DNA of 64,000 bases, taken from the IMG/VR virus record IMGVR_UViG_3300047560_001569, positions 1 to 64,000 of that record, one strand, 5' to 3'. This document shows, one piece after another, positions 24,153 to 35,809 of this stretch. Made by a program: the position numbers and the translations under genes. How positions within the stretch are numbered: position 1 is the first letter of the stretch; each line of letters begins with the position of its first letter. A model generated the notes under the pieces. It was not told the DNA's origin and did no database searches. It was given only the letters and a program-made list of their open reading frames with translations. The DNA is from a virus.

Positions 24153-26672
24153 TTAGAAAAAGTCTGAGAGTGTCCTGCGTTTGCTTTCAATGCTCCAACC
24201 AATAGCATCCGTGATTGTCTTGATTGGTTCAACAAACGATTTATTAAATTGCATCTCACGATCGATATACTGCTCGATGTTCAACTCGGCTGGGATTGAT
24301 CCTGGTGCAGCAATGACAGTTGCAGTTGTGGGGTTAGGTGTCTTTAAATGACAAAACTTGATCTTCTCACCTTCACCTATTAAAGGATATTTATTAGCAA
24401 GTCCTCTCACCTTAAGAATATGATTGTATATCAACGCACCCTTAACGTGAATTGGAGTACTCTTACGATATATTGTTGATGGATCTATGTACTTGTGTAG
24501 TCCGCGGACACTTCTAGGAAAAGCAATATCTTCAAATGATAGTGTTGTATAATGCTCCTTAAAATTCTCAACGAACGACCGCAACTGTCCCTCATCACCA
24601 GCCATGATTACTTTCAATGCTTCTTTAATGTTATCTCGACAAGCACTCGGTGTAGAAGATCGTACTGCCTCAATACCAGATAACTTTAACTTCGGCTCAC
24701 TATACTGCACACCTTCGTTATTGTATACATTGAGAATGTATCTCTTCTTTGCAGTCCATATTCCTTTATCTGCAATTGCCTCTCGCTTCATCTTCATCTT
24801 CTGATCATATGCATTAACATAATCAGCAAGTTTTTGATATGTCTTATCAATAAATGGTTCAAATATCTTTTCACAAACATTATCGAGGTACTTAACAATC
24901 TGCTCTGTGTTCTTCCCTTTGCAAGTTTGCTCAACCAAGGTGCCCAACTTTAAATACATAGAGTCAGTGTCGCATGCGATAACATAATCAACCTTCTCGG
25001 TATTGAGTGTCTTACTGAGGAATTGGTTGATATGTATTTCCATCCAACGAATAGATAGCTGGCCAGACTTCGTAATCGATTCTGCGAGATTAGTATCGAA
25101 CCACCTAAAGTATACATTTGATAAGGCACCATAAGCACTGTTCAATTGAATCTTTTTGGCAAGCTGCATATTGTGGCAACGTGCAATCTCTTTTTCTAAT
25201 TCGTATGTGGGTGTTATCTCATATTGTTGCTTGGCTGCCAACATCTGCTTCTTATATCGAACCCGATCATTATACATCTTCAACATTAACGCTGGAAGAA
25301 ATCCTTGTCTATCTCGATCGAACATACATCCAGAAGCAGCAACAGCAACATTCTGACTAACCATCTTCTCACGTATATCAGAATCATTCAATGCTCCGTC
25401 TAAAATAGAATCGATAGAGAGACTCGGCAATTGACCAACCAACGTTTCGGGTGAAATGTTATACTGCATAATCAAATGAGGATATAGACTGTTCAAGTCA
25501 AAAGAACATACCCATTCATGCATTCCGACTTGAGGATCCTTTACATATGCACCAACAATCTGACCATCCTTTTCTTGCTTACTTGCAAACGGAATTGCAA
25601 CGCCCTGTTTGATTAGGTAGTTATGAATAATGATGTCCCACATACGAACAGACGTGAATGCATCGACGTAGTTTACTTTACCATCATATGCGATAGCAAA
25701 GATCTGCTCAATGAACTTTAACTTATCTTCTAGTTTATCTACAAGTATAACGTCATGGATGTTATAATCAATATATTTTTCATAGTCCTTCTCATAGAAC
25801 TCATGCATCGACTCATACTCAGAATAATCCAGCTTACGTTCGCCAAGTTCAATGAATGCAATATGGTCGAGCTTGAATGATTCCTGTTGTTGGAATGAGA
25901 ACTTCTTATATGCTTGAAGGTAGTCGATGATGCTGATTCCCAATGGAACATATACAGTATATTGTCTACCCATAATTTCAAGTTGACGCTCTTCGAGTAT
26001 GCCCCATGGCGACAATCTCTTTGCAGATTTCTCACCAAGCTGTCGACGTATGCGGTTGACAAGGTATGGAATATCAAAGAACTCAACATTCCAACCAGTC
26101 AACACATCAGGTGCATATTGTTTAGATTGCCATACAGTTAGGAACTTTTCAAGCATATCCTCTTCGCTCTTACATTTAAAGTAGCGAACAGAATCGTTTT
26201 TCGATGTGTAATCTCTCAACCCTAATACGACCGACTGACCGTCTTTACGAAGTGTGATAGCAGTTACTTTTTTATCAGCCTCGTCGATATCAGGAAAACC
26301 ACCATCCGTTGATACCTCAATATCAAGAGTAACAACGGCTATCTTTTTAGGGTCGTAGTCGATATCGCCTGGATAATTATCATTGATAAATGCATACTGG
26401 AAACTAGTAAGACCATACAGTCGTTTATTCGTTATCTCAGCAACATCCTTTATGTAATTGCGAGCATCACGTATTGTGTCAAATTCTTGCTTATATAAAG
26501 GCTCACCCTTCAATGTCTTGTAGGGTGTCTCAATTCCACGTTCTTTGTATGCTTTGTTCGGTTCAAACAAGTATGGTTGATATGGAATTGAGCGCTGGAT
26601 ACGCTCTCCATTTTCGTACCCTCTTAGTAAGATCTCGTCCCTATAGATTTGTACGTTGGTGTAGAAATTCAA
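24153..26672 (-). CDS. 43: DNA polymerase, B family (T4 gp43-like)
   Basis: The 839-residue polymerase has the 3'-5' exonuclease motif VVTLDIEVST (Asp/Glu) in the N-terminal third, polymerase motif A FDLNSLYPHL, motif B KIQLNSAYGALSN and motif C CDTDSMY. It replicates the phage genome with clamp gp45 and loader gp44/62. The start is a TTG (26672) inside TTGA with the upstream stop; the following residues match the usual gp43 N-terminus and no better ATG exists. A little shorter than T4 gp43 (898). Confidence 0.95.
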   Translation of the reverse strand: MNFYTNVQIYRDEILLRGYENGERIQRSIPYQPYLFEPNKAYKERGIETPYKTLKGEPLYKQEFDTIRDARNYIKDVAEITNKRLYGLTSFQYAFINDNYPGDIDYDPKKIAVVTLDIEVSTDGGFPDIDEADKKVTAITLRKDGQSVVLGLRDYTSKNDSVRYFKCKSEEDMLEKFLTVWQSKQYAPDVLTGWNVEFFDIPYLVNRIRRQLGEKSAKRLSPWGILEERQLEIMGRQYTVYVPLGISIIDYLQAYKKFSFQQQESFKLDHIAFIELGERKLDYSEYESMHEFYEKDYEKYIDYNIHDVILVDKLEDKLKFIEQIFAIAYDGKVNYVDAFTSVRMWDIIIHNYLIKQGVAIPFASKQEKDGQIVGAYVKDPQVGMHEWVCSFDLNSLYPHLIMQYNISPETLVGQLPSLSIDSILDGALNDSDIREKMVSQNVAVAASGCMFDRDRQGFLPALMLKMYNDRVRYKKQMLAAKQQYEITPTYELEKEIARCHNMQLAKKIQLNSAYGALSNVYFRWFDTNLAESITKSGQLSIRWMEIHINQFLSKTLNTEKVDYVIACDTDSMYLKLGTLVEQTCKGKNTEQIVKYLDNVCEKIFEPFIDKTYQKLADYVNAYDQKMKMKREAIADKGIWTAKKRYILNVYNNEGVQYSEPKLKLSGIEAVRSSTPSACRDNIKEALKVIMAGDEGQLRSFVENFKEHYTTLSFEDIAFPRSVRGLHKYIDPSTIYRKSTPIHVKGALIYNHILKVRGLANKYPLIGEGEKIKFCHLKTPNPTTATVIAAPGSIPAELNIEQYIDREMQFNKSFVEPIKTITDAIGWSIESKRRTLSDFF

Positions 26673-28387: not shown

Positions 28388-28891
28388 TTAAGCAGCGTCT
28401 TCTACGAGAAGTTGTTTAGTGTCCTTTTTCTTGGACGATGTTTGTTCAACATCTTTTACTTCAATTTTCTTTGGCTTCTTGTGCTCAGGAATAATACGCT
28501 CAAGGAAAACCTTTAGCATACCGTTGAGCATTTGAGCATCTTTAACTTCAATTTGGTCTTCTAGTGCAAAGACGCGTGTAAAGTTACGAGCAGCAATACC
28601 TTTGAAAAGGAAGTTGTTGTCATCTTCTTCAGCACTCTGCACATTGCCTTTCACAACCATCTTACCGTCAGCCAACTCAATCTCAATATCTTGTTTAGCA
28701 AAACCGGCCACGGCGAGTTCGACAACATATGTGTTGTCGCCAGTTTTCTTAATATTATATGGAGGATAGTTAGGGATATTCTTTGTTAGATCATCATGTA
28801 ATTTTGCAATACGGTTATACTGCTCATCGAATCCAACAAAGAAGCGGTCAAAGTCCTTGAACCCAGGTCCAAATACTGATAAATGTGTCAT
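28388..28891 (-). CDS. hsp20: Small heat-shock protein Hsp20
   Basis: Start at ATG 28891 after TAGGAGG; 167 residues. The alpha-crystallin domain is visible from YNIKKTGDNTYVVELAVAGF to the closing GMLKVFLERIIPE (G-x-L-x-V motif), with a Lys-rich C-terminal tail. Hsp20 proteins hold unfolded proteins in the cytoplasm; they are common in T4-like cyanophages. It follows the phasin-like gene and ends at a strong terminator. Confidence 0.93.
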   Translation of the reverse strand: MTHLSVFGPGFKDFDRFFVGFDEQYNRIAKLHDDLTKNIPNYPPYNIKKTGDNTYVVELAVAGFAKQDIEIELADGKMVVKGNVQSAEEDDNNFLFKGIAARNFTRVFALEDQIEVKDAQMLNGMLKVFLERIIPEHKKPKKIEVKDVEQTSSKKKDTKQLLVEDAA

Positions 28892-28904
28892 AACAAACCT
28901 CCTA

Positions 28905-29129
28905 TCACTTAGCTTTAGCTGTAGCAGGGAAAGCCAATTTATGAGCAGCATCATACGAAGCTGTCAATACATCGGCATACGTCTTTGCAATTTGTTTTGC
29001 AAATGAGCGCTGCGACTCTACAAATGATTGAAGTGGTTTCTGCAACGATTCGTCTTTAACGAATGTTTTAATGAAAGTTGTTTTAGCGTCTTGAACTGCG
29101 TCAATAGCTGTATCAGCGAAAAAAGTCAT
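28905..29129 (-). CDS. Helical protein, phasin-like
   Basis: A 74-residue, all-helical protein with KPLQSFVESQRSFAKQIAKT, a pattern reminiscent of phasins (polyhydroxyalkanoate granule surface proteins), including the Ala/Lys-rich tail. Strong AAGGAG before ATG 29129. Co-transcribed with hsp20 behind a structured leader. Phasin identity is a weak inference from composition and helix pattern. Confidence 0.6.
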   Translation of the reverse strand: MTFFADTAIDAVQDAKTTFIKTFVKDESLQKPLQSFVESQRSFAKQIAKTYADVLTASYDAAHKLAFPATAKAK

Positions 29130-29254: not shown

Positions 29255-29386
29255 TTACTCCATCAGGATATAGTCTTCTTTACCTACACCACATTCCGGA
29301 CATAAAAAATCAATAGGAAGCTCTTCCCATTTACCTTCTACTACTTCGTCATGGACATGGCCACAAACTACACATACACGATCCAT
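29255..29386 (-). CDS. Rubredoxin
   Basis: A 43-residue ORF with both rubredoxin iron knuckles: CVVCG (Cys5, Cys8) and CPECGVGKEDY (Cys29, Cys32). The four Cys bind one iron and pass single electrons. It is shorter than the usual 52 residues, having lost part of the loop between the knuckles. Its ATG overlaps the rubrerythrin stop as ATGA, so the two are translated together; the pair equals the two domains of classical rubrerythrin. Confidence 0.88.
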   Translation of the reverse strand: MDRVCVVCGHVHDEVVEGKWEELPIDFLCPECGVGKEDYILME

Positions 29387-29838
29387 CATTGTACCTCCTG
29401 TAACATTCTTTGATAAGCAGTTGCATGACGCTCTTCTACTTTCTTCAATGCAGCAAAACGTCTTTCTGCTTTAGCAAGAATATCAGAGAATTGGGCAGCA
29501 TGATCTTTTGATTCTGCAATTTGTTCTTGCATTTCTTTCTGCACTTCCAATTTACCTTCCGCAACAGCAATGGATTCGAACTGTGGATACATTTCTGTAA
29601 ACTCATACGTTTCACCATCGATTGCTTTTTGCAAGCATTCTTTAGTAGATGGCTTGCCAATCAATAATCCCAAATGACCCCATGCATGCTTGATCTCTTG
29701 ATCAGCTGTATGTTCAAAATGCTTCGCTACGTCCTCGAATCCCTCTTCACGAGCGATCTTTGCGAAGTAACGATACTTAACATGAGCCATCGACTCACCA
29801 GCCAATGCGCTTTCTAAATTTGCCAATGTTGCTGACAT
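29386..29838 (-). CDS. Rubrerythrin (diiron peroxidase domain)
   Basis: The 150-residue protein is a four-helix diiron protein: Glu15 in GESMAH, Glu48-x2-His51 in QEIKHAWGH, the Glu-rich third helix EFTEMYPQFE and AEGK, and Glu135-x2-His138 in VEERHATAY. Rubrerythrins reduce hydrogen peroxide to water, drawing electrons through a rubredoxin. The C-terminal rubredoxin domain of the classical protein is missing here, and is supplied by the overlapping downstream gene. Confidence 0.88.
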   Translation of the reverse strand: MSATLANLESALAGESMAHVKYRYFAKIAREEGFEDVAKHFEHTADQEIKHAWGHLGLLIGKPSTKECLQKAIDGETYEFTEMYPQFESIAVAEGKLEVQKEMQEQIAESKDHAAQFSDILAKAERRFAALKKVEERHATAYQRMLQEVQ

Positions 29839-29919: not shown

Positions 29920-30453
29920 TTATGGATTCTTAGGTGAATGTGGGACATCGAATACAAATGTTATCCTATCAACTGTTCCATTATTTAATGCTGAGTGGTG
30001 CTTTTTATTATCAAACCAAAAAAACGTACCAGGTTCTATTTGGTGATACTCACCATCAACCTCATAAAGATATGTGCCTTGCAGTGATAAGTGGTATCTA
30101 TCTCTAGTCAAATAATACTTACCCTCATCAATATGTCGCCCTACACTGCCTCCTGGCTTCAATCTAAAGAACGCAGCTCTGCTCGTATTAAATACGTTTC
30201 GATTACGAAGCCACTTTCTTATTTCAGAATACTTTTTATACAGTGGTGTGTTCTGTTGGAGTTCAGTATCTTTCGGGCTGTCGTTTATATCTCTAACAAC
30301 TGCCATTACTAATGGCAAAAACCCATATGGCTTTAGATCGCCTGCTATGTTCTTGTAGGATGATACTGCTTGCCAGTCTTCAGGATTATCATTAATTTGT
30401 TTGATAATCTTACTGACGTCAACATTACGTTCAATAAATCTAAAATTACTCAT
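29920..30453 (-). CDS. Aspartyl/asparaginyl beta-hydroxylase-like 2-oxoglutarate oxygenase
   Basis: Start at ATG 30453, overlapping the previous stop (TGATG); 177 residues. A double-stranded beta-helix core is visible with the Fe(II) ligands HID at 107-109, the distal His in NKKHHSALNN (152/153) and the 2-oxoglutarate Arg in VDRITFVF (163), the AspH/LpxO arrangement. These enzymes hydroxylate Asp/Asn side chains or lipid A. The target here is unknown. Confidence 0.8.
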   Translation of the reverse strand: MSNFRFIERNVDVSKIIKQINDNPEDWQAVSSYKNIAGDLKPYGFLPLVMAVVRDINDSPKDTELQQNTPLYKKYSEIRKWLRNRNVFNTSRAAFFRLKPGGSVGRHIDEGKYYLTRDRYHLSLQGTYLYEVDGEYHQIEPGTFFWFDNKKHHSALNNGTVDRITFVFDVPHSPKNP

Positions 30454-30629
30454 CAATCCTCACGTTCATCTGACAAAGCTTCCTCGGTAGTCAACACATC
30501 ATAATATTCGTCTTTAGTCGTATTGGTATTGTCTTCTTTACTTTTTTTACCGAAAACTCTCTCCCAATTATTATCATATGTGTTTTTATCTACACTATAT
30601 GGTCTAGGAGCACTTCCTTTTCCTGACAT
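30453..30629 (-). CDS. Conserved small protein of the MSGKGSAPRP type
   Basis: A 58-residue ORF, MSGKGSAPRPYSVDKNTYDN and onward WERVFGKK, which I recognise as a short protein widespread in phages with no known function. The rest is acidic and probably disordered. Its stop overlaps the hydroxylase ATG. Confidence 0.75.
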   Translation of the reverse strand: MSGKGSAPRPYSVDKNTYDNNWERVFGKKSKEDNTNTTKDEYYDVLTTEEALSDERED

Positions 30630-30642
30630 ATATCATCCCTAT

Positions 30643-30966
30643 TCAAACTGGTCTAAAACTCTCACCACATCCACATCTATCACGCTCGTTAGGATTCTTG
30701 AACTCAAACCCCTCATTCAATCCGTTTCTAGCATAGTCGATTGTCATTCCTTTCAAGTATAATAAACTTTTAGGATCAACAATAACCGATACTTCATTAG
30801 TATTAAATACATTATCCTCAACATTTACCTGATCAACATATTCTAATACATATGCCATTCCAGAACAACCAGTAGTACGAACGCCAACTCGTACACCTAT
30901 TCCTTTGCCACGCTTTACTAGATGGTTGGATATTCTTTTTGCTGCTTGTGGTGTTATCTCAATCAT
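30643..30966 (-). CDS. A-type Fe-S carrier (IscA/HesB family)
   Basis: A 107-residue IscA-family protein with the three cluster-binding Cys: Cys34 (TTGCSGMAY), Cys98 and Cys100 (RCGCGESF). A-type carriers take Fe-S clusters from the scaffold to apo-proteins. It is the closer of two paralogues to E. coli IscA in its C-terminal CGCGESF. Overlaps the second carrier by four bases. Confidence 0.92.
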
Positions 30967-31280
30967 ACACTAAAAGATGATCCACATCCACAGGTCGTCT
31001 GTGCATTTGGATTGATAATTTTAAATTGACTACCAGTCAAATCATCAGTGTAATCGATTGTTGCTCCAGTTAAGTATTGCATACTCAATGCATCTGCTAC
31101 AACTGGTGCACCATTAATTTCAAAATCATCTTCATTCTGTACATCTTCCAACATGAATCCATATTGAAATCCTGAACAGCCGCCACCTTCAACATACACA
31201 CGAACCTTCAATCCGGGTTCATTTTCTTCTGCAATAATTTCTTGAATTTTTGCTACTGCCGATTCGGTAATTGTTAGCAT
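30963..31280 (-). CDS. A-type Fe-S carrier (ErpA-like)
   Basis: A 105-residue protein with Cys35 ([11 protein letters not shown]), Cys97 and Cys99 ([11 protein letters not shown]). The GGGCSGFxYxF block and long N-terminal acidic helix are ErpA-like. Overlaps iscU by seven bases. Two A-type carriers next to a scaffold mimic part of a bacterial isc operon. Confidence 0.92.
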
Positions 31281-31660
31281 GTTAGAGCAGCCTTTCTTTT
31301 ATAATCCGCTACTGCGGCTTTGATGGCGTCTTCGGCGAGGATTGAACAATGGATTTTGACTGGGGGGAGAGCAAGTTCTTCAGCAATCTCGCTATTACGT
31401 ATGGATCCTGCTTCCTCAAGTGTTCGACCTTTGACCCATTCTGTAACGAGGCTACTGCTGGCAATGGCTGACCCACAACCGTATGTTTTGAATCTTGCAT
31501 CTGTAATGATCCCGTCTTGTACTTTTATTTGTAATTTCATTACATCACCACAAGCGGGCGCTCCTACCATGCCTGTGCCTATACCTTCTTCATCTTTAGA
31601 AAATGAACCCACATTACGTGGGTTCTCGTAGTGATCAACAACTTTATCTGAATATGCCAT
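31274..31660 (-). CDS. iscU: Fe-S cluster scaffold IscU
   Basis: The 128-residue scaffold is complete: Cys37 with Asp39 ([11 protein letters not shown]), Cys62 ([11 protein letters not shown]), the HscA recognition motif LPPVK at 98-102 and His104-Cys105. IscU receives sulfur from a cysteine desulfurase (IscS) and builds [2Fe-2S] clusters. No iscS, hscA/B or fdx is in the window, so host partners would be needed; the intact LPPVK fits use of host HscA. Confidence 0.95.
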
Positions 31661-33248: not shown

Positions 33249-33324
33249 TGGTACTCCGTGGGGGAATCGAACCCCTCCTTACCCGCGTGAAAGGCGAGTG
33301 TCCTAACCGATAGACGAACGGAGC
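33249..33324 (-). tRNA. tRNA-Glu (TTC), copy 1
   Basis: Full cloverleaf with anticodon loop CTTTCAC, D arm GTCTATCGGTTAGGAC, T arm GGGGTTCGATTCCCC and encoded CCA. Confidence 0.93.
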
Positions 33325-33337
33325 ACATATCTGGTTT

Positions 33338-33415
33338 TGGAGCAACGGGCTGGATTCGAACCAGCGGCTTTTGGGATTTGCAATCCCATGCATTGGGCCT
33401 CTCTGCCACCGTTGC
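33338..33415 (-). tRNA. tRNA-Cys (GCA)
   Basis: Cloverleaf with anticodon loop TTGCAAA on stem TGGGA/TCCCA, T arm GGTTCGAATCC, discriminator T (U73, the cysteine identity base) and encoded CCA. Confidence 0.93.
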
Positions 33416-33431
33416 AGTATCTAATTCATGT

Positions 33432-33460
33432 ATTATACGCAATTTATATATCAATGTCAA
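33432..33460 (-). promoter_or_regulatory. Perfect-consensus sigma70 promoter inside tRNA cluster
   Basis: Minus-strand TTGACA (33460-33455), 17-base spacer, TATAAT (33437-33432). Both boxes match the bacterial consensus completely. It starts just after the degenerate tRNA and drives tRNA-Cys, tRNA-Glu and probably the small membrane protein. Confidence 0.8.
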
Positions 33461-33463
33461 TTG

Positions 33464-33534
33464 TACCTTGTGACGGAATCGAACTGCCGTCTGCGCCGTG
33501 TAAACACACGGCCCTACCATTAGACGAACGAGGC
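33464..33534 (-). tRNA. Degenerate tRNA-like gene (Val TAC or other)
   Basis: The unit has an acceptor stem with a C:A mismatch, a D arm GTCTAATGGTAGGGC, and a T arm GGCAG/CCGTC with an A:C mismatch around TTCGATT. The anticodon arm is a palindrome whose best pairing leaves a 6- or 8-base loop; with a regular 7-base loop (TTTACAC) the anticodon is TAC (Val) but the closing pair is G:G. CCA is not encoded, unlike its neighbours. Possibly a decaying gene. Confidence 0.5.
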
Positions 33535-33537
33535 ATA

Positions 33538-33625
33538 TGGTGGAGGCTCTCCGATTCGAACAGAGAAGAGACAAAGCTAACAGATTTACAGTCTGCCCCC
33601 GACACCGTTACGGGACTAAACCTCC
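33538..33625 (-). tRNA. tRNA-Tyr (GTA), copy 1
   Basis: Class II tRNA with long variable arm, anticodon loop CTGTAAA, T arm CTGTTCGAATCGG and encoded CCA. Confidence 0.9.
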
Positions 33626-33635
33626 ACACTTTTTT

Positions 33636-33711
33636 TGGCTGGCCAACCTGGGCTCGAACCAGGGACACCTTGATTAACAGTCAAGTGCTCTACCAACTGA
33701 GCTATAGGCCA
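33636..33711 (-). tRNA. tRNA-Asn (GTT), copy 1
   Basis: Cloverleaf with D arm AGCTCAGTTGGTAGAGC, anticodon loop CTGTTAA, T arm CCTGGTTCGAGCCCAGG, discriminator G, encoded CCA. One T:T mismatch in the acceptor stem. Confidence 0.92.
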
Positions 33712-33716
33712 ATAAT

Positions 33717-33793
33717 TGGTTCCTCGACTTGGATTTGAACCAAGGACCAATGGATTATGAGTCCACTGCTCTAACCAACTGAGCTATCGAGGA
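33717..33793 (-). tRNA. tRNA with CAT anticodon (elongator Met, or Ile2 if lysidine-modified)
   Basis: Cloverleaf with acceptor TCCTCGA/TCGAGGA, anticodon loop CTCATAA, T loop TTCAAAT, encoded CCA. Lacks the initiator features (three G:C pairs in the anticodon stem, 1:72 mismatch). The 5' end is overlapped by the 3' end of the upstream CDS. Confidence 0.9.
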
Positions 33794-34035
33794 GTAATCT
33801 TTTTCTTTCTTAATTTCATTCCTATAAACGTACCACAAAAAGCTCCGATACCGGCTGGTATCAGCAACCAGTGATCTGTAGTATAGTTGATTACGGCTGT
33901 ACTTGCGACAACAAACACGATTACTGCCCATGAGCTGGCCAGCAATGGTTTATCATGTTCTACAGATTTCAAATAATGTGTATAAAACAAATCTGTAAAA
34001 AATAATGCAAGAAACGTAACAACCCAATCAACCAT
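33784..34035 (-). CDS. Small multispanning membrane protein
   Basis: Start at ATG 34035 with AAGGAG 11 bases upstream; a GTG at 34068 is an alternative. The 83-residue product has three predicted membrane helices (4-22, 30-50, 57-75) and a basic tail (KLRKKK). Resembles a short phage membrane-protein family. Its last codons and TAG stop lie within the first ten bases of the tRNA-CAT gene. Confidence 0.65.
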   Translation of the reverse strand: MVDWVVTFLALFFTDLFYTHYLKSVEHDKPLLASSWAVIVFVVASTAVINYTTDHWLLIPAGIGAFCGTFIGMKLRKKKITPR

Positions 34036-34074
34036 AGATTTTAAATCTCCTTTTACTTTCCTTACCACAAAACT

Positions 34075-34149
34075 TGGTGCCGACTATCGGATTCGAACTG
34101 ATGACCTATCGCTTACAAGGCGATTGCACTACCACTGTGCTAAGTCGGC
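34075..34149 (-). tRNA. tRNA-Thr (TGT)
   Basis: Cloverleaf with acceptor GCCGACT/AGTCGGC, anticodon loop CTTGTAA on ATCGC/GCGAT, T loop TTCGAAT, encoded CCA. Confidence 0.92.
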
Positions 34150-34153
34150 TAAT

Positions 34154-34231
34154 TGGTCGGAGTACAAGGATTCGAACCTTGGACCCTCTGGTCCCAAACC
34201 AGATGCGCTAGCCAGACTGCGCTATACTCCG
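34154..34231 (-). tRNA. tRNA-Pro (TGG)
   Basis: Cloverleaf with acceptor CGGAGTA/TACTCCG, anticodon loop TTTGGGA, T arm CAAGGTTCGAATCCTTG, encoded CCA. Overlapped by the 3' end of the upstream CDS. Confidence 0.93.
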
Positions 34232-34621
34232 AATTTTGGTGGTGATGGATGGAATCGAGCCATCGACCGACTGCGTATGAATTGGTAAGATAATTTCACC
34301 AAGAGTATGATCCATACTCCAAGTATCCCAGTAATCAATCTTTACATACTTTCTTGGCAGTTTCTCTTTTTGTTTATCAATCCAAAGCAGAAACTTATAC
34401 AACCACGTTTCATGGCGATCTCTATCCCATTTAGTGATATCGCCAACCTGTGGTTCTGGTTCTACACTACCATGCGCTAACCATTCACCAAAATTATGAA
34501 CACGATCAGCAGGATGCTCAAATCCAAATTCATCTTTTTCTTTTGGAACCCAGAACATCAGCTTTTCAGCTAACTGATATGGTCCAAACCAGTTGCGAGG
34601 TTTTCCAATCCAAACTTTCAT
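34208..34621 (-). CDS. Conserved phage protein with tRNA-derived C-terminus
   Basis: Start at ATG 34621. Residues 1-113 match a widespread phage family I recognise by MKVWIGKPRNWFGPYQLAEK, FGEWLAHG, TWLYKFLLWI and DYWDTWSMDHTLGEIILP; function unknown. After GEIILPI the frame runs into sequence that is plainly the 3' half of a tRNA (34237-34274) and then into tRNA-Pro, so the last 25 residues are not native. The gene has been cut by recombination with a tRNA and may be partly degraded. Confidence 0.75.
   Translation of the reverse strand: MKVWIGKPRNWFGPYQLAEKLMFWVPKEKDEFGFEHPADRVHNFGEWLAHGSVEPEPQVGDITKWDRDRHETWLYKFLLWIDKQKEKLPRKYVKIDYWDTWSMDHTLGEIILPIHTQSVDGSIPSITTKIRSIAQSG
34237..34274 (-). 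pseudogene. tRNA 3'-half remnant
   Basis: Perfect T arm (GATGG/CCATC around CTCGATT), the 3' acceptor strand CATCACC, discriminator A and CCA, preceded by GCAGTC-GGTC like an anticodon-stem 3' side plus variable loop. No matching 5' half follows; instead coding sequence is joined on. Confidence 0.75.
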
Positions 34622-34821
34622 CACTCACTCCCAATTTTGTTGATCAGAGTTTTATTCATTTCCATAGATCTTTCAAGCATTGTATCCAAGTGATCAATTC
34701 GATCTTCATAAAATTTAATCAAATCTTGAATGCGTTTTTCATGCTCAGCTTCACGCTCTTTCTTTTCAGCGGATAGTGCTTCAGCAACTGCTTTCCAATC
34801 TTCTTCATTGTCCCAAGGCAT
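34621..34821 (-). CDS. Small coiled-coil protein
   Basis: Start at ATG 34821 after AAGGAGAAGTAT. The 66-residue protein (MPWDNEEDWKAVAEALSAEK...) is a charged helix. Its TGA overlaps the next ATG (TGATG). Similar short acidic coiled coils occur in phages; no function known. Confidence 0.7.
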   Translation of the reverse strand: MPWDNEEDWKAVAEALSAEKKEREAEHEKRIQDLIKFYEDRIDHLDTMLERSMEMNKTLINKIGSE

Positions 34822-34838
34822 ATACTTCTCCTTAAAGG

Positions 34839-34913
34839 TGGCTCCACAGGCAGGGATCGAACCTACGACCAATTGATTAACAGTCAACTGCACTACCGCT
34901 GTGCTACTGTGGA
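34839..34913 (-). tRNA. tRNA-Asn (GTT), copy 2
   Basis: Cloverleaf with acceptor TCCACAG/CTGTGGA, anticodon loop CTGTTAA, discriminator G, encoded CCA. The acceptor and D arms differ strongly from copy 1, so this is not a recent tandem copy. Confidence 0.92.
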
Positions 34914-34950
34914 ATATAAACTTGAAAGTTCCGATACTACCCATCGTCAC

Positions 34951-35097
34951 TTACAACCGTTGGGAAAGAGGTACAGCTTTCGCAAACATTTCCATTTGTT
35001 CTGGCGGTCTCAAGGGGTAACGATCCCCTTCTTCATGCGTGACAGGCATGCGTGCGTCCATGAACACTTTGAAACCAAATTGGTGCAGGGCTTCCAC
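34951..35097 (-). CDS. Possible small ORF or gene fragment between tRNAs
   Basis: A 48-codon frame from GTG 35097 (or ATG at MDARM, 13 codons later) to TAA, product ending EEGDRYPLRPPEQMEMF and a further dozen residues. Composition looks protein-like but no start has a Shine-Dalgarno sequence. Between it and tRNA-Tyr lie two hairpins (CCTTGA/TCAAGG at 35132-35150 and a GAAA-capped stem). May be a remnant. Confidence 0.3.
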   Translation of the reverse strand: MEALHQFGFKVFMDARMPVTHEEGDRYPLRPPEQMEMFAKAVPLSQRL

Positions 35098-35158
35098 CTG
35101 CTGCTAATCAAACCTTTCGGTGATTAATCTGCCTTGATCTATCCTCAAGGACTTTTAT

Positions 35159-35251
35159 TGGTGGAGGCAGTTGGAGTCGAACCAACAATGTTTACCACGA
35201 GGGAACGGATTTACAGTCCGCTGCAGAACACGCCATATCTACAATGCCTCC
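35159..35251 (-). tRNA. tRNA-Tyr (GTA), copy 2
   Basis: Class II tRNA, acceptor GGAGGCA/TGCCTCC, large D loop, anticodon loop CTGTAAA on GCGGA/TCCGT, long variable arm, T arm GTTGGTTCGACTCCAAC, encoded CCA. Confidence 0.88.
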
Positions 35252-35259
35252 AAAAATTT

Positions 35260-35383
35260 CCATTAGTTTTGCTGACTGCACTATTTGCTATGCTCAACGG
35301 AATTGCTAGCTAGACGTACCGTTTATGTACATAGTTACTCAGGCGTGATCAAGCCCATGGCTTACAATCAGCAAAACTAATGG
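35260..35383 (-). ncRNA. Long-stem non-coding element A
   Basis: Perfect 16-base inverted repeat, 35260-35275 with 35368-35383, enclosing 92 bases that contain no reading frame but several short hairpins. Its first three bases in the transcript are the CCA of tRNA-Glu copy 2, and it ends nine bases before tRNA-Tyr copy 2. It may be an RNA in its own right or a processing element between tRNAs. Confidence 0.55.
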
Positions 35384-35456
35384 TAGTCGGTGCGGGAATC
35401 GAACCCAGCCTTACTGCCGTGAAAGGGCAGTGTCCTAACCGATAGACGAACCGACC
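35381..35456 (-). tRNA. tRNA-Glu (TTC), copy 2
   Basis: Cloverleaf with acceptor GGTCGGT/ACCGACT, anticodon loop CTTTCAC, D arm as in copy 1, encoded CCA. The acceptor and T stems differ from copy 1. Confidence 0.93.
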
Positions 35457-35608
35457 AAAGTGCAGAGGAAGCCCCCACCCAACGCATCTCTACAGTATCA
35501 TTCTCCCAACGATACCCCTTACGTGGGGATTCCAGACGTAACTGGTAACTCCCCAATACCCCATGCTTGCGAATCGACACAAGACTCATAGAGGATTTCA
35601 GAACTACT

Positions 35609-35637
35609 ATTATACTACATATAAAATTGCAAGACAA
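35609..35637 (-). promoter_or_regulatory. Sigma70-like promoter between tRNA-Asp and tRNA-Glu
   Basis: Minus-strand TTGTCT (35637-35632), 17-base spacer, TATAAT (35614-35609). The 150 bases downstream to tRNA-Glu hold no convincing gene; they include a CCCC/GGGG hairpin near 35514-35527 and a 24-45 codon open frame of low credibility. Confidence 0.6.
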
Positions 35638-35645
35638 TACTTTTT

Positions 35646-35719
35646 TGGCGTCCCGTGAGAGATTCGAACTCCTATCAACGGCGTGACAAGCCGCTATACT
35701 AACCATTATACTATGAGAC
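35646..35719 (-). tRNA. tRNA-Asp (GTC)
   Basis: Cloverleaf with anticodon loop TTGTCAC on GCGGC/GCCGT, T loop TTCGAAT, discriminator G, encoded CCA. The acceptor stem has one A:C mismatch and one wobble. Confidence 0.88.
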
Positions 35720-35724
35720 CAAAT

Positions 35725-35809
35725 TGGTGGAGAATCAGGGATTCGAACCCCGTATACCTGAGGTGGAAGATTTACAGTCTCCTGAAGTCGCCAATGCTTC
35801 TCATTCTCC
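35725..35809 (-). tRNA. tRNA-Tyr (GTA), copy 3
   Basis: Class II tRNA, acceptor GGAGAAT/ATTCTCC, anticodon loop CTGTAAA on GGAGA/TCTTC, long variable arm, T loop TTCGAAT, encoded CCA. First tRNA of the cluster in transcription order. Confidence 0.88.

What the first reader, a model, noticed from the sequence alone, without database searches (positions are those of the whole stretch)
29255..29838. Rubrerythrin and rubredoxin as two overlapping phage genes
A 150-residue diiron rubrerythrin lacking its C-terminal rubredoxin domain is followed with ATGA overlap by a 43-residue rubredoxin. Together they equal one classical rubrerythrin split in two. This peroxide-reducing pair is typical of anaerobes and microaerophiles and is not a usual phage cargo. 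The rubredoxin is missing part of the loop between its knuckles.
Basis: partly seen in the sequence, partly recalled or inferred. Interest (0 to 1): 0.85.

Follow-up and report, generated by a model that had tools for sequence, protein, structure and literature searches.

The report
Phage-borne peroxide-reducing gene pair
This phage, like some 130 other uncultured viral contigs examined, carries two overlapping genes for an iron enzyme that probably destroys hydrogen peroxide and for the small iron protein that probably feeds it electrons, a compact copy of a two-gene unit that freshwater bacteria also have.

Summary
On the minus strand lie a 150-aa rubrerythrin (29838-29386) and an overlapping 43/44-aa rubredoxin (29389-29255), on a T4-like phage contig. 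Both are under purifying selection, and a Shine-Dalgarno sequence inside the first gene serves the second. 78 of the 80 nearest viral relatives have the same rubredoxin straight after the rubrerythrin; the other two end at the contig edge.

'A classical rubrerythrin split in two' is not supported. The closest bacterial relatives (mostly freshwater Betaproteobacteria, 60-66% identity) already have a one-domain rubrerythrin plus a separate rubredoxin gene just downstream. They fit the 'cyanobacterial-type' group of aerobes, not anaerobes. The phage version adds gene overlap and a rubredoxin loop shortened by 9 or 12 residues.

The whole group shows a ligand oddity: the helix-4 glutamate (Glu126 in sulerythrin) is an invariant serine preceded by an almost invariant Glu. 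Helix 4 is about 25 residues longer than usual and carries a second conserved ExxH.

Most likely function: a domain-swapped dimeric peroxidase, with rubredoxin passing electrons from a host reductase (none found in ten phage records). Activity is inferred, not shown.

The parts
29386..29838 (-). one-domain rubrerythrin, 150 aa
   Evidence: fold match to P. furiosus rubrerythrin and sulerythrin
29255..29389 (-). short-loop rubredoxin; 44 aa from the first ATG, 43 aa from the second ATG at 29386, which has the better SD spacing
29394..29399 (-). Shine-Dalgarno AGGAGG for the rubredoxin, inside the rubrerythrin gene
   Evidence: sequence; context
29500..29514 (-). E109-S110-x-x-H113 in helix 4: Ser at the place of the canonical Glu ligand, invariant Glu just before it
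29794..29796 (-). diiron ligand E15
   Evidence: invariant
29686..29697 (-). diiron ligands E48 and H51
   Evidence: invariant
29602..29613 (-). diiron ligands E76 and E79
   Evidence: invariant
29392..29472 (-). C-terminal extension of helix 4 (residues 123-149), not covered by any matched solved structure beyond residue 127
29425..29436 (-). second conserved motif E135xxH138 in the extension

Best explanation
The two genes are a translationally coupled NAD(P)H-peroxidase module that the phage brings into the infected cell. The rubrerythrin forms a homodimer, probably domain-swapped, with a diiron centre that reduces H2O2 (and perhaps organic hydroperoxides) to water. The separate rubredoxin carries electrons one at a time from a host flavoprotein reductase to the diiron centre. 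The module would protect iron enzymes needed in infection, such as ribonucleotide reductase and, in this phage, its own iron-sulfur assembly proteins. It descends from a bacterial two-gene unit (one-domain rubrerythrin plus rubredoxin) that was compacted and diversified widely in aquatic phages. Shown: genes, coupling, conservation, selection, kinship and predicted fold. Inferred: dimer form, peroxidase activity, rubredoxin as donor, host reductase, benefit to the phage.
For: Family and fold. Near-constant pairing with overlap and an SD-like motif. Purifying selection on both genes. Bacterial relatives are the same two-gene unit. The Vampirovibrio MAG has the pair just after a thiol-peroxidase-like gene. 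One-domain and cyanobacterial relatives are proven peroxidases: PMC3317640, PMC6616624. No reductase in ten phage records.
Against: No enzyme data. One canonical ligand position is Ser. Two studied relatives take electrons from FNR without a separate rubredoxin. The reductase search covered only two families and incomplete records.
Confidence: 0.68

Rival explanations
1. The rubrerythrin is a peroxidase fed directly by a host ferredoxin:NADP reductase; the rubredoxin is a carrier for some other enzyme and stays next to it only by operon inheritance.
For: FNR is the donor for ferriperoxin and Anabaena RbrA.
Against: Pairing in 78 of 80 nearest phage relatives and translational overlap, kept across 164-356 kb genomes of different phages.
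Confidence: 0.15
2. The rubrerythrin mainly handles iron (ferroxidase or iron donor for iron-sulfur assembly), with the phage IscU, ErpA and IscA nearby.
For: Isc genes lie at 31660-30643 in this phage; ferroxidase activity has been reported for rubrerythrins (PMC3317640).
Against: Isc genes are not seen around the pair in related phages; it does not explain the rubredoxin.
Confidence: 0.09
3. A classical two-domain rubrerythrin was split into two genes.
For: The two proteins together have the domain content of a rubrerythrin.
Against: Bacterial relatives have two genes with a full-length rubredoxin; the rubredoxin matches PF00301, not the rubrerythrin C-terminal type; its loop (20 or 17 residues) exceeds the 10-14 of classical rubrerythrins.
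Confidence: 0.03
4. Degraded or hitch-hiking genes with no function.
For: One canonical ligand position is not Glu.
Against: pN/pS about 0.19 for both genes; E109, S110, H113 invariant in 152 phage loci and Ser110 also invariant in the bacterial relatives.
Confidence: 0.04

Closest known systems
Two-gene rubrerythrin-rubredoxin unit of freshwater Betaproteobacteria (Rhodoferax, Limnohabitans, Polaromonas, Aquabacterium and others)
   Same: Same one-domain rubrerythrin with long helix 4 and ExxxH region (60-66% identity), with a rubredoxin gene directly downstream.
   Different: Genes mostly 15-170 nt apart rather than overlapping; rubredoxin about 54 aa with a full loop.
'Cyanobacterial-type' (group 5) rubrerythrins, incl. 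Anabaena RbrA (PMC5114695, PMC6616624)
   Same: One-domain proteobacterial members; rubredoxin of the long-spaced kind.
   Different: Cyanobacterial members are fused to the rubredoxin; RbrA takes electrons from FNR. No direct sequence comparison was made here.
Sulerythrin / ferriperoxin ('aerobic-type' rubrerythrins)
   Same: One-domain rubrerythrin, domain-swapped fold; ferriperoxin is a proven peroxidase.
   Different: Canonical Glu126 present; no helix-4 extension; no partner rubredoxin gene. Pelagibacter phage Mosig carries this type.
Pyrococcus furiosus two-domain rubrerythrin
   Same: Short loop between helices B and C, gap-free alignment over 119 residues, best fold match.
   Different: Fused C-terminal rubredoxin domain; Glu where the phage has Ser110.
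Short-loop rubredoxin PDB 6rxn (Desulfovibrio desulfuricans, from memory)
   Same: Natural rubredoxin of about 45 residues (46-residue chain), so a shortened loop has precedent.
   Different: Matched stretch is two residues longer; no known link to a rubrerythrin gene.

Membership tests
Rubrerythrin family (PF02915) | Significant match to the family profile over the ferritin-like domain | tested here: met
   63.6 bits against cut-off 22.8; fold match
Rubrerythrin family (PF02915) | Full set of diiron ligands incl. Glu of helix 4 (ExxH) | tested here: inconclusive
   Six of seven positions kept; Glu126-equivalent is Ser110, with invariant Glu109 beside it. Coordinates of the model were not available to measure.
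Rubrerythrin family (PF02915) | Peroxidase activity | not testable with these tools
   Needs biochemistry
Classical two-domain rubrerythrin | C-terminal rubredoxin domain in the same chain | tested here: not met
   Separate gene; below the NCBIfam rubrerythrin cut-off, 78.8 against 200
Cyanobacterial-type (group 5) rubrerythrin, proteobacterial clade | One-domain chain, relatives in proteobacteria and the cyanobacterial phylum, long-spaced rubredoxin as partner | tested here: inconclusive
   Features fit but reference sequences of the group were not compared
Aerobic-type rubrerythrin (sulerythrin, ferriperoxin) | ExxH in helix 4 and chain ending soon after it | tested here: not met
   Ser110 and a 25-residue extension
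Rubredoxin (PF00301) | Two CxxC knuckles and profile match above cut-off | tested here: met
   33.1 bits against 23; four Cys in all 77 phage rubredoxins checked
Phage auxiliary metabolic gene | Host-type metabolic gene inside a genuine phage genome, under selection | tested here: met
   T4-like core genes, synteny with related phages, pN/pS

The most novel reading that the evidence does not exclude
A phage-spread peroxide reductase with its own architecture: a diiron site whose helix-4 carboxylate has moved by one residue (ExxxH in place of ExxH), a helix extension with a second ExxH that serves as rubredoxin dock or extra metal site, and a minimal co-translated rubredoxin; phages may have passed it to a Vampirovibrio chromosome.
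Probability: 0.3. Interest if true: 0.68.

Novelty: new variant of a known kind. Interest (0 to 1): 0.52.

Why it matters
Peroxide removal by rubrerythrin is hardly recorded as a phage function: one silage virus in the papers found (PMC10146946) and one annotated gene among the phage records that matched (Mosig). Yet hundreds of uncultivated viral contigs encode a relative, and in this clade the pair is kept intact. That suggests that protecting the infected cell from peroxide is a common part of infection by aquatic T4-like phages. The Glu->Ser change and the long fourth helix concern a whole rubrerythrin group, found in bacteria as well, for which no matched solved structure covers the extension.

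Tried and rejected
Split classical rubrerythrin: rejected. Chance ORF for the rubredoxin: rejected (conservation, SD, pN/pS). The first structure job on phage sequences alone gave a weak model (pLDDT 74); adding bacterial relatives raised it to 95. I considered that the true helix 4 is the C-terminal half (E135xxH138) and residues 97-122 an insert; the gap-free alignment to P. furiosus rubrerythrin and to the last part of sulerythrin, and the continuous predicted helix, favour residues 97-122 as the bundle helix. A terminator after the rubredoxin looked plausible by eye, but the scan did not call it and the folding was not unusual. Promoter-like matches are no more frequent than in shuffles. 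BFVD gave no significant viral fold match. A reductase gene was sought in ten phage records without success. The Vampirovibrio MAG looked nested among phages, but the tree with phages as one clade without it is not rejected (p-AU 0.54), so the direction of transfer is open.

Full report
What is there. The window is part of a 67.6-kb virus record that is plainly T4-like: gp43-type DNA polymerase, UvsX, DnaB-like helicase, gp20 portal and gp23 major head protein. The closest cultured relatives of the head protein are Stenotrophomonas phage DLP6 (69%) and Methylophilales phages (64%), so a proteobacterial host is likely but not shown. On the minus strand at 29838-29386 lies a 150-aa rubrerythrin, and at 29389-29255 a 44-aa ORF (43 aa from the second ATG) that is a rubredoxin. 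The ATGATG start region overlaps the TGA stop, and AGGAGG sits at 29399-29394, seven bases before the second ATG, which makes the 43-aa form the better guess.

It is not an accident of this contig. 373 stretches of IMG/VR encode a relative of the rubrerythrin. Of the best 80, 78 have the short rubredoxin after it, nearly always overlapping or abutting, and the other two end at the contig edge. A second scan seeded with a bacterial sequence gave 451 relatives; its 72 newly fetched loci show a short rubredoxin after the rubrerythrin wherever sequence remains, with a few spaced by 142 nt. Some of these lie on contigs already seen, so together about 136 different contigs were examined. Records of 164-356 kb carry the pair. 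Six of the long ones (164-235 kb) have a gp20 portal 50-53% identical to the window's; the 356-kb one has a 34% partial match and a 264-kb one has none. All 143 overlapping or abutting pairs have an SD-like motif before the rubredoxin start, by a permissive test. Pooled pN and pS are 0.117 and 0.620 for rubredoxin, 0.127 and 0.670 for rubrerythrin.

Ancestry. The scan of bacterial and archaeal genomes brings back almost only Betaproteobacteria, many from freshwater (Rhodoferax, Limnohabitans, Polaromonas, Aquabacterium, Zoogloea, Gallionella), about 59-66% identical over nearly the full length. All 37 betaproteobacterial loci examined have a separate rubredoxin gene just downstream, mostly 15-170 nt away, of about 54 aa with 29 residues between its CxxC pairs. 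The nearest ancestor was thus probably already two genes; nothing suggests that a classical rubrerythrin was split. In the tree the phage sequences plus one Vampirovibrio MAG form one side of a branch with support 100/99, next to the Betaproteobacteria. The MAG (L149, 76% identical) carries the short-loop, overlapping form on a 1.49-Mb contig, just after a gene that reads as a thiol peroxidase. It may be a phage gift or a relic of the donor: a tree with the phages as one clade without it is not rejected (p-AU 0.54).

Which rubrerythrin. Cardenas et al. 2016 (PMC5114695) describe a 'cyanobacterial-type' group 5: cyanobacterial members are fused to a long-spaced rubredoxin and a proteobacterial clade lacks it. 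The features here fit that clade, though its sequences were not compared directly. Relatives at 47-56% also occur in the GTDB class of the Vampirovibrio MAG. The rubredoxin loop is 20 residues in 80 distinct phage sequences and 17 in 17 others, against 29 in the bacterial ones.

The active site. E15, E48, H51, E76, E79 and H113 are invariant. Alignments to sulerythrin and P. furiosus rubrerythrin, gap-free in this part, place Ser110 where sulerythrin has Glu126, the position changed in several engineered PDB entries. Glu109 is invariant in 152 phage loci, and among 37 betaproteobacterial sequences there is one Asp. On an ideal helix Glu109 is 40 degrees and Ser110 60 degrees from His113, so Glu109 could take over as an ExxxH ligand; this is inference. 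The AlphaFold2 model (pLDDT 95) has a fourth helix running from 97 to 149, about 25 residues beyond the usual end, with a second invariant ExxH at E135/H138. In the profile searches no solved structure matches beyond residue 127. Foldseek matches P. furiosus rubrerythrin and sulerythrin (both domain-swapped according to PMC3317640) at 1.3-1.7 A in nearly all cases, and D. vulgaris rubrerythrin poorly (rmsd about 14 A), so a domain-swapped dimer is likely.

How it most likely works. A one-domain and a cyanobacterial rubrerythrin studied so far are NADPH-dependent peroxidases (ferriperoxin, PMC3317640; Anabaena RbrA, PMC6616624). In both, FNR is the donor and no separate rubredoxin is needed; this is the main reason for caution about the rubredoxin's role. 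The constant coupling of the genes argues that here the rubredoxin is the donor. No reductase of two large families was found in ten phage records, so electrons would come from a host reductase. The benefit would lie in protecting iron enzymes; this phage also carries a ribonucleotide reductase large subunit and IscU, ErpA and IscA. The Isc genes are not seen around the pair in related phages, so they are not part of the module.

What is new. Rubrerythrin in a virus is mentioned once in the papers found (a silage virus, PMC10146946). Among the 8 phage records that matched, only one is annotated, in Pelagibacter phage Mosig, where it is of another type without a rubredoxin neighbour. The paper library is incomplete, so earlier reports cannot be excluded. 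The enzyme family is known; the widespread, compact phage form and the group-wide ligand change were not found described in the sources reached here.

Noticed in passing
window 30643-31660 (-): Three overlapping iron-sulfur assembly genes, IscU, ErpA and IscA, all above NCBIfam equivalog cut-offs. Related phages with the pair lack them at this place.
   Followed up: partly
L149 3340-4587: Vampirovibrio MAG: thiol-peroxidase-like gene, then the phage-like rubrerythrin and short-loop rubredoxin, between ordinary chromosomal genes.
   Followed up: partly
L189-L268: Virus contigs related to Pelagibacter phage Mosig carry a sulerythrin-type rubrerythrin with no rubredoxin gene after it (80 of 80); 349 relatives in IMG/VR.
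   Followed up: partly
window 29920-30456 (-): Aspartyl/asparaginyl beta-hydroxylase-like gene just upstream of the rubrerythrin.
   Followed up: no
window 28388-29129 (-): Hsp20 and a 74-aa protein of unknown function just downstream of the rubredoxin, often found near the pair in related phages.
   Followed up: partly
window 33249-35809 (-): Twelve tRNA genes, with Glu(ttc), Asn(gtt), Asp(gtc) and Tyr(gta) each present twice.
   Followed up: no
window 24153-26672 (-): The gp43-like DNA polymerase ORF opens with TTG; the match to the phage polymerase family begins at that residue.
   Followed up: no
L331 (356,312-base virus contig): A jumbo-sized virus contig with only a weak partial gp20 match carries the same pair, so the pair may have crossed between phage groups.
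   Followed up: no
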